Positions 1-5,348 of a stretch of DNA of 64,000 nt are shown here, one piece after another. The notes beneath the pieces are model-generated. The model did not search any database, was not told the origin of the DNA, and worked only from the letters and a program-made list of their open reading frames with translations. Position 1 is the stretch's first letter, and each line of letters begins with the position of its first letter. The stretch comes from Prillingera fragicola (Eukaryota; Basidiomycota; Tremellomycetes; Trichosporonales; Trichosporonaceae): NCBI GenBank assembly GCA_002335605.1, contig BEDY01000004.1, positions 124,001-188,000 of the forward strand, read 5' to 3'. The translations under genes and the position numbers were made by a program.

Positions 1-154
1 ACTAGTTGCGATAGCAGTCTGCATTTTGAAGACAACAATGAATATGTGGAGTTTATGTGAGATTTTTACTTCTGAGTATCTATTGGCTATCACCCACCAC
101 ACCGTGCACGACTGCGTGCTCGCCAAAGAGAATGACCTTGCCAGGTGCGCTGAC
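1..154 (-). CDS. ERG12: Mevalonate kinase N-terminal module (downstream half of the fusion, partial)
   Basis: This is the same reading frame as the beta-lyase, listed separately because it is a second enzyme. VSAPGKVILFGEHAVVHG is the N-terminal GHMP-kinase signature specific to mevalonate kinase, which phosphorylates mevalonate to 5-phosphomevalonate in isoprenoid and ergosterol synthesis. An intron (19..97: donor GTGGGT, acceptor ATGCAG) is followed by codons for TAIATS, which continue the family pattern (HGVTAIATS). The ATP-binding PGGGLGSSA-type motif and the rest of the enzyme lie left of the window. No ATG in this frame lies between the beta-lyase core and this motif, so a separate protein would need an unusual start or an unseen promoter and exon. 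Confidence 0.85.
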
Positions 155-1693
155 GACAATGTCGTCCTCGATCGTCTGGCTGTCGCCGTTGCCGAGAGTA
201 AGACCCTTCTTGACGCCCTCGACGAGGCCGTCGTCACCGCCAGGCCTGCGGAACGCACGCGCACGCTCAGTAGCCCATTTCTTGGGGTCCTGGTCGTAGA
301 GAATCGAGAGCTTCTCGGATGAGAGAAGGTCAGGGGCCACGGCGGGAACAATGGCACCGGCAATGACAAGAGCGCGCTCGAGGTCGTCGAGCAAGTCGCG
401 GGGGTCCTCGATACCGATGCAGAGGCGGATGAGGTTCTCGGGGAGACCGCGCTCGGCACGGACAGCGGCAGAGATCGAGGCGTGCCTAAGGATGGTTAGT
501 GACAACTCTTTCAGCAAGGGGCAAAGACTACTCACGACATGAGACAGGGCATCGAGATGAGCGAGTTGACAGCTCCAAACGACACACTGACACCCCAGAG
601 GCGGGCGGCGGAAACAATGCGCTCCGACAGCTGCTTGTCGCCAGTGACAAACGACATGACAGCACCGGCACCGCTGGCCTGCTTCCAGTGAATGTCGGCC
701 TTGGGGTGGCTCTTGAGACCGGGGTAGTGGACGAGGAAGTCGAGCTGGTCGAGATAGTTGGCCACGAGCTGGGCGTTGGCCTCCTGCTTGTCCATGCGAA
801 GCGCAAGAGTCTTGACACCACGCATAAGAAGGAACGAGTCGAAAGGTGCGAGACCTGATCCGCCGGCGTTGACGTGCCAAGCAACGTCTTTGGCGAGCTC
901 GGGCTGACCAACAGCAATGATACCAGCCATAAGGTCGTGGTGACCAGAGAGATACTTGGTTCCCGAGTCGTAGACAATGTCGGCACCGTACTCGAGGGGG
1001 CGCTGGAGGTAGGGCGACATCATGGTGTTGTCGACGACAATGATGGCGTTGGGGTAGGCAGTGTGGACAGCGGCAGAGATCTCTGCAATGTCGGCAATCT
1101 TGAGCAAAGGGTTGGTAGGCGACTCGAGTAGGACCATCTTGACCCTAGGTTTTGTCAGCGCAAGTTGTTGACGAGCATTAAGCAACTCACTTGTTTCCAG
1201 GCTCGAGATGCGGCCTCAAAGCGTCGACATTCGTAGTGTCCACATGACGGACGTCGACACCGCCATGGCTCTTGGCGTAGGTAAGAAGACGGTTGGTGCC
1301 GCCATACAAGTCGTCACCGGCAAGGACAGTCTCTCCGGGCCTGACAAGACGCAGAATAACGTCCAAGCAGGTCATGCCAGTCGAGAGGGCAAACGCCGCC
1401 GATGCACTGTAAAGACGCGCGAGGTGAGACTCGAGTCCGCCACGGGTAGGGTTACCACTGCGAGTGTAGTCGTAGGGTCCTTCCATGCCCTTGAAGGTCG
1501 CGGTCTGGAAGATTGGTGTGCTCGAGGCGCCATACTGGTTCTGGCTCGTGTCGGTCGCGACGACCTGGGTAGCGAAACGCCACTTTTGGGCGCGAGCCTC
1601 AAAGGAGTCGCCGTCCGAGGGAGACTTTGAGTCGTAGACCGAGGTCGCGAGTGATGACTCGCCGGGGGAGGAAGGGGCGGCAGACGACGACAT
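1..1693 (-). CDS. STR3: Cystathionine beta-lyase fused in frame to mevalonate kinase (3' end outside window)
   Basis: Exons read as complement(join(<1..18, 98..485, 536..1144, 1191..1693)); all three introns are GT-AG and keep phase. The first ~435 residues are a PLP-dependent Cys/Met-metabolism enzyme that closely follows fungal cystathionine beta-lyases, which cleave cystathionine to homocysteine in methionine synthesis. Landmarks are SGNPTR, GDDLYGGTNR, VLLESPTNPL, the PLP lysine in SGTKYLSGHHD (about K231) and the terminal VNSLISMPCLMSHAS and IRLCIGIEDP. I chose ATG 1693 (MSSSAAPSS) because the upstream open frame is a low-complexity leader. The family normally ends about 15 residues after the IEDP block. 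Here the frame stays open through a ~50-residue linker into VSAPGKVILFGEHAVVHG (from residue ~482), the mevalonate kinase signature, and continues across one more intron to the window edge. No in-frame Met separates the halves. The beta-lyase call is firm; the fusion is read directly from sequence but untested. Confidence 0.9.
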
Positions 1694-2849: not shown

Positions 2850-5348
2850 TCAAGCGGCCTTGTCACGACGCTTCTCCTCCCGTGCACCGGCCTCGTCGGC
2901 CTCCATTGCAGTTCCGAGACTCAGACTACTCGAGCTCGAACGCAAATGGCTAAACTTGTTGCTACTCAGCACGCGACGGTGGCCCAGCGCACCAAGCGAT
3001 CCGTACGGCGAAGGCGACACGGGCGCGCCGAGCATGTTCCGACGGATCGAAGGTGAACCTGGCCCGTCGGTGAACGGTGCGCGACGCGCGTCCGCCGTCA
3101 GGGTCTGCAGGAACTCGTGGCGGCTCGTCACTCCAGTGTCAGAGAATGGTGCGTTGCCAGAGACGTTGCGACCGCGGAATTGCGGCGTGTCACCCGCTAT
3201 GAGCATGGTGGATGGCACCCTCGACCGGCCCACCAAGGGGGTCATCGAGAACAGGCTTCCGGTAAACTGGCCAGCCATGCGCGGGTCAGTGCTCAGATGA
3301 CGCGACGGGGTCGAGTTGACGTCAAACACTGGGTCGTCGGCACGAGGAGTAGAGAAGCGGTCAGGCTGCCTGGCAGACGGCATGGGGGTACTGGGTGCCT
3401 CGTCATTGTTTGCGACGCCCCACAGGTCGTTGCCGTAGGACAGCACGCGCGCACGCTGGCGCCGGCTGGGCGTGAACGGGGTCTGGGCATTTACAGTACC
3501 AGCCGCACGCGCAGCCTCGCCAGCAAACATAGGGGACGGCGCCAAGGCAAGCGCCTGGTTGCCGCGGAAGGCAGTGGCCGAACGCTCGTTCGAGTTGAGG
3601 TACGACGGCGGAGTACGCGCTGAGGGAGTGGCCAAAGTGGCACGGCGGGCTTGGTGCACACAAGCGTTGCAGCTCCAGGTAGGAGCAAGCTGAACATCCT
3701 CTAGACCGACGCAACCCAGGTGGTGCCACGTTTTGCAAGAGTTGCACGAGATCATGGACCCGTTGCTGACCGGCTGCTTGCAGACACAGTTGATAATGGG
3801 CGTAACAGTCTGGTGAGACTGCCCCGGTCGCCGTCCTCGATTCAACGTTGACAGCAAAGCTGCCCTCGCATCCGAAGGGCTTCCCTGCGCCTGCGCCGAC
3901 AGAACGGGAGGCAAAACAGGACGAGCACGCGCATCCCTTGTACGCTTGTTGGGGAAACGAGCGGCACCGTCATCGTCATCCTCGTCATCACTGGAAGTCT
4001 CGAGGTAGCGCTGGAGCAAGGCGTTACGCTCCTTGTCCTCGCGGAGCTGCTTGGCGAGACGAGTGCAACCGTGCTTCCAGGGTGCCTCATCGTCTGGCCA
4101 GTCGGGGCGAACTGGTGCCCGCTCCGAGCCATTGACGGCAGCCCAGCTCTCCTCGTCCTCGCCGCGCCTCTCCTCAACAACATGGGTCGCCTTGTCGAAA
4201 CCGATGAAAGCCAGGGCAAGGTCCTTGCGGAGCGCCACACGAGTGGGCTGCCCTTGTCCCATGTCGAGGCGGATGGAGAACATCCGGTCCAATGGCCTCG
4301 ACACAACGTTGAAGGCAGATATCCTGCGCTTCACCTTTTGCTCCTTAGTCCTCGGTGTGTCGTCCTGCTCGCCAGGCGTCACTTGAGACTTTGGTGTTCC
4401 TGGAGTTGGTGTTTGAGGGGTGTCCTTTTCCAGCCACTCGAGGTCTGACCGCAGCACATTGGCACTGCCCACTGTGGCAACTCCAGAGTCGTTGACGGAA
4501 ATGGCAGGTGCTGCTGTAGTGCGCGGCGGTCCACATGATGCAACCTCGTGCACCGTCTCTGAACCAGAGGAGGTTTGGACCAAGCCAAGCTTGCGTCCTT
4601 CCTCCGCCGTGTTCGTGACGAAGACGCCGTGCTTGGGCGACTTTGCCTTTTCTGAAGGCACAGAGCCGCCGCTAAGTGTAGCGTTGTGTCCACCAGTCGA
4701 GGGAGGCGTCGGCAGTGACGATGCACCTGTTGGTAACCTCCGCTTCGTTGCACCACCTTCCGCGATGTCTGACGCAAGCGACGCCATTGATGTCTTTCGT
4801 GGTGTTCGCAACTCGTCTTTGACCTGTGAACTGCTGCTCCGCTTGCGCTTGTGCGACGATGACACTGATGCCGTGCTCACAACCGAGGCATTATCCCATC
4901 CTTGGCCTTGAGGCGGATGGTAGACGACTGGCTCGTACTGGAATGGCGCTTGGTACATTGGTTGAGGAGTCATGTCCGAAGGCTGACTCTGGCGCCTCGA
5001 GGGTCCAGGGACCGGTCCTCCTTGCGGGTAGACATAGTATGGCTCCTGCTGCTGCTGATAGTAGCCAGCTTGAGGTGCAGACGTGGGGTAGGTGGGGTAG
5101 ACGGGGGCAGAGAATTGGGGAGGGAGAGCGTCGACCTGGTAGGTAGCAGTGGTATTGATTTTCGGGGGACGGTTCATCCTAAGTCGTCAGCACGAGCTCA
5201 TGGCACAATCTCACCTTTCTTTGTCCTTGATAGACGGGCGTTTGGCGGTGATGGCGTAGTGCTCTGTCAGCAGCTCCTGCTTGAGAACAGGACCGCCAGA
5301 GTGAAGCTGAGAGTGCGGGTTCGACTCAAAGATGACGCCGCCGTTCAT
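2850..5348 (-). CDS. PHD-finger protein
   Basis: Model complement(join(2850..5178, 5215..5348)), 820 aa. The 36-nt intron has donor GTGAGA and acceptor TTAG and joins ...IKDKER to MNRPPKI in phase, so the ATG at 5177 is probably internal. I took ATG 5348 (MNGGVIFES) because the preceding bases look like a 5'-UTR intron end (CTAAC then ACAG). A single PHD finger sits near residues 504-552: CVC, then SCNSC, WHHLGC and WSCNAC supply the Cys4-His-Cys3 zinc ligands. PHD fingers read histone H3 tail modification in chromatin complexes. The rest is low-complexity: a Q/Y/P-rich N-terminus, Ser/Thr/Pro stretches with basic KRKRSS-type clusters that could be nuclear signals, an acidic SSDDEDDDD run, and a Ser-rich tail. 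I cannot assign a specific complex. The start is the least certain part. Confidence 0.75.

What the first reader, a model, noticed from the sequence alone, without database searches (positions are those of the whole stretch)
1..1693. Cystathionine beta-lyase and mevalonate kinase share one uninterrupted reading frame
After the complete beta-lyase the frame has no stop. It crosses a linker of about 50 residues and enters the mevalonate kinase signature VSAPGKVILFGEHAVVHG, then continues in phase over another intron. No in-frame Met lies between the halves. A fusion of a methionine-pathway lyase with an early sterol-pathway kinase is not one I know from model fungi. It would tie sulfur amino-acid synthesis, and hence S-adenosylmethionine used in ergosterol C-24 methylation, to isoprenoid flux, or simply co-express the two. 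The functional link is inference; the open frame is directly visible.
Basis: partly seen in the sequence, partly recalled or inferred. Interest (0 to 1): 0.85.

Follow-up and report, generated by a model that had tools for sequence, protein, structure and literature searches.

The report
Basidiomycete lyase–mevalonate kinase fusion gene
One gene in this yeast makes a single protein joining an enzyme of methionine synthesis to an enzyme of sterol synthesis; the join is real, but it is the usual arrangement in mushrooms and their relatives and has been in print since 2012, although its purpose is unknown.

Summary
The gene runs on the minus strand from window 1693 out of the left edge. The host assembly holds the rest: four GT–AG introns and one 890-residue frame, with a complete cystathionine beta-lyase (residues 42-410), a 69-residue linker without methionine, and a complete mevalonate kinase (480-890). 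No other locus for either enzyme was found in this genome.

It is not new. Of the 120 listed database hits, 119 carry both domains by table annotation and the last has the kinase motif. They span three basidiomycete subphyla. The 36 fused kinases tested form one clade beside ascomycete stand-alone enzymes. Two 2012 papers describe the fusion as general in basidiomycetes (PMC3342255, PMC3468542).

Active-site residues are intact in 118 of 118 near-full-length relatives. Most likely it is a bifunctional enzyme of two independent catalysts on one chain, made once early in the phylum and locked in because the kinase has no start codon of its own. A regulatory link between methionine/SAM and sterol synthesis is possible but untested.

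The parts
1191..1693 (-). exon 1: ATG at 1693, N-terminal extension and first part of cystathionine beta-lyase
   Evidence: spliced model; Pfam PF01053 at residues 42-410, 403 bits
1145..1190 (-). intron 1, 46 nt, GT..AG
   Evidence: the spliced reading NKVKMVLLESPTNP continues the lyase in the alignment to 1ibj
536..1144 (-). exon 2: lyase core; the PLP lysine K231 (SGTKYLSGH) lies at 957-955
   Evidence: K231 conserved in 118 of 118 fusions; role recalled
486..535 (-). intron 2, 50 nt, GT..AG
98..485 (-). exon 3: lyase C-terminus (to 368), linker (367-161, residues 411-479, no Met) and first 21 residues of mevalonate kinase (160-98, ending VVSAPGKVILFGEHAVVHGV)
   Evidence: kinase K487 aligns with rat MVK K13, 118 of 118 fusions
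19..97 (-). intron 3, 79 nt, phase 0 after HGV; if unspliced the frame stops after VGDSQ
   Evidence: 7 of 120 protein models listed run into the unspliced equivalent intron
1..18 (-). start of exon 4 (TAIATS), which continues left out of the window; stop codon at L005:4808, 1,192 bases beyond window base 1

Best explanation
This is the basidiomycete metC-MVK (STR3-ERG12) fusion gene. It encodes one polypeptide with two enzymes on a tether. The N-terminal half is a PLP enzyme that cleaves cystathionine to homocysteine, ammonia and pyruvate for methionine synthesis. The C-terminal half is the only mevalonate kinase found in the genome; it starts the phosphorylation steps of isoprenoid and ergosterol synthesis. 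Shown here: one frame, both sets of active-site residues conserved, no second locus for either enzyme found, one clade for the kinase halves tested. Inferred: both halves are active; they work independently (unrelated substrates, a linker of variable length and sequence); and the fusion arose once in or before the common ancestor of the three subphyla and stayed because the kinase half lost its own promoter and start codon while remaining essential. The main consequence is fixed 1:1 production of the two enzymes under one promoter.
For: The full frame and domains are. The lyase half passes the curated cystathionine beta-lyase cut-off TIGR01329 (527.5 against 487.5 bits), and Arabidopsis CBL 1ibj is its best solved relative. 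The kinase half matches rat and human mevalonate kinase over most of its length (1kvk, 2r3v). Residues aligned with rat K13, S146, E193 and D204, and PLP lysine K231, are conserved in 118 of 118 fusions (catalytic roles recalled). The other three GHMP loci read as homoserine kinase, mevalonate diphosphate decarboxylase and phosphomevalonate kinase, and the other four PF01053 loci over the Pfam cut-off do not pass the beta-lyase cut-off. Between the lyase motif RxCxGxED and the kinase motif SAPGK there are 53-124 residues (median 62; 84 in the window), with no Met in 73 of 114 fusions and no position shared by the other 41. The kinase tree gives one fusion clade, 99/97, sister to Ascomycota. 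In the predicted model of an orthologue the stretch 454-472 of the linker is weak and pTM is 0.53, so the two halves have no well-defined mutual orientation. Published descriptions agree.
Against: There are no transcript, protein or activity data for this organism. 41 of 114 fusions do have a Met before the kinase motif, in some lineages about 28 residues upstream (Ustilago relatives), so an internal start is not excluded everywhere. The first part of the linker is predicted helical with good confidence (427-446), so it is not only a loose tether. Two unnamed kinase rows with no visible lyase, P0154 and P0159, sit inside the fusion clade; they may be splits or incomplete exon-wise predictions. 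Rat E296 is not conserved (T in the window, mostly A in relatives). G. lingzhi mevalonate kinase is reported as a direct SREBP target (PMC9810662), so a regulatory meaning is not excluded.
Confidence: 0.85

Rival explanations
1. Two neighbouring genes that only look joined: the kinase is made from its own transcript with its own start exon, or by a non-AUG start.
For: No cDNA is available. Some database models list a lyase without the kinase domain, e.g. Vanrija humicola 506 aa, or a kinase without lyase, e.g. a 315-aa Phaffia record and unnamed rows. An ATG at the end of intron 3 is in frame with exon 4 (by eye).
Against: There is no in-frame ATG between M370 and M591 in the spliced frame. 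A start at the end of intron 3 would leave out the first kinase motif. The Vanrija model and six others run into the unspliced intron 3 and carry that motif. The Phaffia record lacks the motif and the species also has a 905-aa fusion.
Confidence: 0.03
2. The fusion couples the two pathways functionally: shared transcriptional control by sterol-sensing SREBP, or allosteric cross-talk, matches homocysteine/SAM supply to sterol methylation demand.
For: The join is conserved across three subphyla with both sites intact. The mevalonate kinase gene g3941 of Ganoderma lingzhi is a direct SREBP target and is upregulated by it (PMC9810662 passages), and in Ganoderma lucidum the fusion is the only kinase homologue. 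Helices in the linker.
Against: Whether g3941 is the fusion is not stated in the passages read. SREBP-like motifs are near chance here: 7 one-mismatch sites in the window against 4.19 expected, 12 of 100 shuffles as high (motif recalled). Linker length and sequence vary. The substrates are unrelated, so channelling makes no sense.
Confidence: 0.15
3. Retention of the conserved intron 3 switches between a lyase-only protein of about 505 residues and the full fusion.
For: Protein models from several lineages run into an intron at the same site after HGV, and in 6 of 7 the unspliced read ends within 32 residues of the motif start (the seventh after 71). It is the longest of the four introns here.
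Against: Most unspliced introns would do this by chance. The models that end there may be prediction artefacts; I saw no RNA. A Mucoromycota stand-alone kinase model (P0188) seems to share the intron site, so the intron may predate the fusion (weak).
Confidence: 0.05
4. Assembly or sequencing error that removed a stop codon in the linker.
For: Only one assembly of this organism is held.
Against: The same continuous frame occurs in the hits, 107 of 120 with an organism name, and in two papers' own genome sets.
Confidence: 0.01

Closest known systems
metC-MVK fusion of Ganoderma lucidum and other basidiomycetes (Liu et al. 2012, PMC3342255; passages read)
   Same: N-terminal cystathionine beta-lyase and C-terminal mevalonate kinase, about 886 aa on average; the only MVK homologue and only metC best hit in the genomes; found only in basidiomycetes.
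   Different: Nothing essential. The window protein (890 aa) appears to lack the 16-residue kinase insert that 7 of their 12 species have (by eye, not tested).
STR3 orthologues with a C-terminal mevalonate kinase in Basidiomycota (PMC3468542; passages read)
   Same: The same fusion, found from the lyase side; no stand-alone kinase found in basidiomycetes.
   Different: That paper saw Postia placenta as an exception; Postia was not examined here.
Separate STR3 (cystathionine beta-lyase) and ERG12 (mevalonate kinase) of ascomycetes
   Same: The same two enzymes; the ascomycete kinases tested are the sister group of the fused ones.
   Different: Two genes, reported as not clustered (PMC3468542).
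Spermidine synthase-saccharopine reductase fusion SpdsSr of basidiomycetes (PMC10051792; abstract and outline read)
   Same: Another basidiomycete fusion of two biosynthetic enzymes from different pathways that are separate in ascomycetes.
   Different: Different enzymes.
Arabidopsis cystathionine beta-lyase 1ibj and rat mevalonate kinase 1kvk
   Same: Best solved relatives of each half by sequence; 1ibj is also first by predicted fold and 1kvk rank 38 (2r3v leads the kinases at rank 13).
   Different: Stand-alone proteins; none of the 58 PDB sequences matched at E <= 1e-60 spans both halves.

Membership tests
basidiomycete metC-MVK fusion | one frame with lyase then kinase, about 890 aa | tested here: met
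   890 aa, PF01053 then PF00288 and PF08544
basidiomycete metC-MVK fusion | no other mevalonate kinase in the genome | tested here: met
   the other GHMP loci are homoserine kinase and mevalonate diphosphate decarboxylase (both over cut-off) and a frame whose best hit is ERG8 phosphomevalonate kinase (293.6 bits, under its 376.95 cut-off); 17-contig assembly, completeness not given
basidiomycete metC-MVK fusion | kinase half groups with other fused kinases | tested here: met
   inside the fusion clade (99/97), next to Cutaneotrichosporon cavernicola (100/99)
basidiomycete metC-MVK fusion | 16-residue insert in the kinase (7 of 12 published species) | tested here: inconclusive
   by eye the window lacks the HxGRxA stretch of the A1 consensus; that this stretch is the published insert is assumed
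cystathionine beta-lyase (TIGR01329) | score above the curated cut-off | tested here: met
   527.5 against 487.5 bits
cystathionine beta-lyase (TIGR01329) | PLP-binding lysine | tested here: met
   K231 in SGTKYLSGHHD, 118 of 118 relatives; role recalled
cystathionine beta-lyase (TIGR01329) | cleaves cystathionine | not testable with these tools
   needs an assay
mevalonate kinase (GHMP family) | GHMP N and C domains above cut-off | tested here: met
   38.9 against 22.3 bits and 26.3 against 21 bits
mevalonate kinase (GHMP family) | catalytic and Mg-binding residues (rat K13, S146, E193, D204) | tested here: met
   window K487, S620, E661, D672; 118 of 118 relatives; roles recalled
mevalonate kinase (GHMP family) | phosphorylates mevalonate | not testable with these tools
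   needs an assay

The most novel reading that the evidence does not exclude
The fusion is kept because it lets one sterol-sensing promoter, and possibly retention of intron 3, set methyl-donor (homocysteine/SAM) supply and isoprenoid flux together in basidiomycetes, a control link that ascomycetes, with two separate genes, do not have in this form.
Probability: 0.1. Interest if true: 0.6.

Novelty: already known. Interest (0 to 1): 0.3.

Why it matters
The fusion ties an amino-acid enzyme to an essential sterol enzyme in fungi of three subphyla, and no functional study of it showed up in the listings of ten literature searches (open-licence papers only). It also has a practical consequence: deleting or silencing 'mevalonate kinase' or 'cystathionine beta-lyase' in such a fungus would touch both enzymes. 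Names in databases hide this: in the list only two rows (P0044, P0115) are named for both halves.

Tried and rejected
Separate-gene reading: looked for an internal ATG, a second kinase locus and stand-alone basidiomycete relatives. No named exception survived, but the lists are capped at 120 of 6191 and 120 of 7856 hits, and 29 of the 119 new rows lack the first kinase motif, unnamed fragments among them. P0154 and P0159, unnamed kinases with no visible lyase inside the fusion clade, could not be followed to their contigs and stay open. P0169, which also shows no lyase, is 93% identical to the fused P0168.

Sterol-response promoter motif: a one-mismatch ATCACCCCAC site (motif recalled) lies at 2018-2027, upstream of the gene, but such sites are near chance in the window, so it is not used. 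The other motifs scanned gave no hit. The bacterial promoter/terminator scan is not informative for a fungus.

Channelling between the active sites: rejected on chemistry and on the variable linker; the model cannot place the halves relative to each other (pTM 0.53).

Lyase tree (52 rows): basidiomycete lyases against ascomycete plus Mucoromycota ones need one change, but the basal fork is open and the outgroup branches are very long, so it is only compatible with one origin. Kinase tree: 84 rows chosen by me: 36 of 120 fusions, 20 unnamed rows, 27 named outside rows and the window.

Counts: one search used the 120 hits; 6 lacked a motif by the pattern used and were dropped (114 left). One search used 118 of the 120 (two under 800 aa dropped). 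Alignment A1 and the model used 76 of the 120. In one search, three weaker PF01053 matches under the cut-off (on C8, C6 and C1) were not scanned further.

Full report
Observation. The window is bases 124001-188000 of contig 4 of a 20.25-Mb, 17-contig assembly. On the minus strand a frame starts at ATG 1693 and runs out of the left edge. I fetched the neighbouring bases (L005) and spliced the gene at GT-AG introns: introns of 46, 50, 79 and 38 nt, an uninterrupted frame of 890 codons, and a stop at L005:4808, 1,192 bases beyond the window. Pfam finds Cys_Met_Meta_PP at residues 42-410 (403 bits), GHMP_kinases_N at 595-679 and GHMP_kinases_C at 766-837. The 69-residue linker has no methionine; the nearest are M370 inside the lyase and M591 deep in the kinase.

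What the halves are. The lyase half scores 527.5 bits against the cystathionine beta-lyase model TIGR01329 (cut-off 487.5), and its best solved relative is Arabidopsis CBL 1ibj. The kinase half aligns over residues 2-379 of 411 with rat and human mevalonate kinase (1kvk, 2r3v). The PLP lysine (K231) and the kinase residues matching rat K13, S146, E193 and D204 are present in the window and in 118 of 118 near-full-length relatives (catalytic roles are recalled). Rat E296 is not conserved (T in the window, mostly A in relatives).

Is it the only copy? The genome has three other GHMP loci over the Pfam cut-off. They read as homoserine kinase and mevalonate diphosphate decarboxylase, both over their NCBIfam cut-offs, and phosphomevalonate kinase ERG8 as best hit but under its cut-off (single open frames, introns not resolved). 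Searching with the kinase half itself finds only this gene, exon by exon. Four other PF01053 loci over the cut-off are an O-acetylhomoserine sulfhydrylase (over its cut-off), two frames whose best hits are cystathionine gamma-synthase or gamma-lyase models (under cut-off), and a distant one (best hit BesB, under cut-off); none reaches the beta-lyase cut-off. So the fusion is the sole source of both activities as far as this assembly and these searches show.

Relatives. A search with residues 380-890 gave 1216 hits among 7989 scored candidates, 120 listed. By the table 119 carry PF01053 together with a GHMP domain; the other (P0003) has the kinase motif. 107 of the 120 bear an organism name. 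The closest is Cutaneotrichosporon cavernicola (66%). The lyase half is 83-85% identical to P0241 of Vanrija humicola and the unnamed P0240, so the host is probably in Trichosporonales (lineage of Vanrija). The list includes Tremellomycetes, Dacrymycetes, Agaricomycetes, Microbotryomycetes and Ustilaginomycetes (classes recalled from the genus names). With the kinase alone as query (120 of 6191 hits listed), the named single-domain hits are ascomycetes, Mucoromycota and other early-branching fungi, and animals; the one named basidiomycete without a lyase is a 315-aa Phaffia record whose species also has the fusion. With the lyase alone (120 of 7856 listed), all 8 named basidiomycete rows contain the kinase motif. 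Seven of those 120 rows, Vanrija humicola among them, run into the unspliced equivalent of intron 3 after HGV. The window's own unspliced reading does the same.

Linker. Between the lyase motif RxCxGxED and SAPGK there are 53-124 residues in 114 fusions, median 62, 84 in the window; 73 have no Met there. The other 41 have Met at differing places, shared only among close relatives (for example about 84 residues upstream in Kwoniella and about 28 in Ustilago relatives).

Origin. A tree of 84 kinase domains puts the 36 fused kinases tested, the window and 16 unnamed rows in one clade (99/97), sister to the ascomycete kinases (97/82). Within it are groups matching Pucciniomycotina, Ustilaginomycotina and Agaricomycotina (names recalled), with one unnamed fusion (P0158) outside them. 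One fusion event in or before their common ancestor is the simplest account. The lyase tree is compatible but weakly resolved at its base. P0154 and P0159, unnamed rows with no visible lyase, fall inside the clade and may be secondary splits or incomplete predictions.

Structure. An AlphaFold model of the Cutaneotrichosporon orthologue as a monomer (76-row alignment) has mean pLDDT 82.8 and pTM 0.53. Most of both domains is confident, but 1-29, 36-79 and 352-365 in the lyase part and 454-472 in the linker are under 50; linker helices at 427-446 are confident. Foldseek's best hit is 1ibj for the lyase; 2r3v, 8tfo and 1kvk lead for the kinase. None of 58 PDB sequences matched at E <= 1e-60 spans both halves.

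Literature. Liu et al. 2012 (PMC3342255, passages) describe 'metC-MVK' in 12 basidiomycetes except Laccaria bicolor, as the only MVK homologue and only metC best hit, and place its origin in the basidiomycete ancestor. A Magnaporthe study of the same year (PMC3468542, passages) found the same from the lyase side, with Postia placenta as exception. Two later papers repeat it (PMC3720577, PMC4129116; passages). Two Xanthophyllomyces papers list ERG12 with no occurrence of 'cystathion' in their text (PMC4393869, PMC8420053; passages). The listings of ten searches showed no functional study of the fusion; the library holds only open-licence papers.

Mechanism. Both active sites are kept in the relatives examined, the linker varies, and the two reactions share no metabolite. 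The best reading is two independent enzymes on one chain, locked together because the kinase half has no start of its own and is essential (genes reading as the next two enzymes of the pathway are present and no other kinase was found). A regulatory benefit is possible: the Ganoderma lingzhi mevalonate kinase gene is a direct SREBP target (PMC9810662, passages), which if it is the fusion would place a methionine enzyme under sterol control. This is inference, and no sterol-response signal above chance was seen here.

Verdict. Real, correctly observed, already known. The open question is why the fusion has been kept.

Noticed in passing
L005:4052-4551 (about 1.4-1.9 kb left of the window): Two tRNA-Ser genes (anticodons cga and aga) downstream of the fusion; by eye a third serine-tRNA-like copy with an insert lies between them and was not called by ARAGORN.
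   Followed up: partly
2850-5183, minus strand: 777-codon open frame with a PHD finger, upstream of the fusion gene.
   Followed up: partly
P0241 (Vanrija humicola VHUM_04162): A database lyase model that ends in the unspliced intron after the first kinase motif, so the species looks unfused in annotation but probably is not.
   Followed up: partly
P0188 (Jimgerdemannia, stand-alone kinase): The gene model has QTAIAAS after an unrelated start, as if an acceptor site lay there, suggesting the intron after HGV may predate the fusion.
   Followed up: no
P0154 and P0159 (unnamed metagenomic proteins): Mevalonate kinases with no visible lyase that group inside the fusion clade: possible secondary splits or incomplete predictions.
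   Followed up: partly
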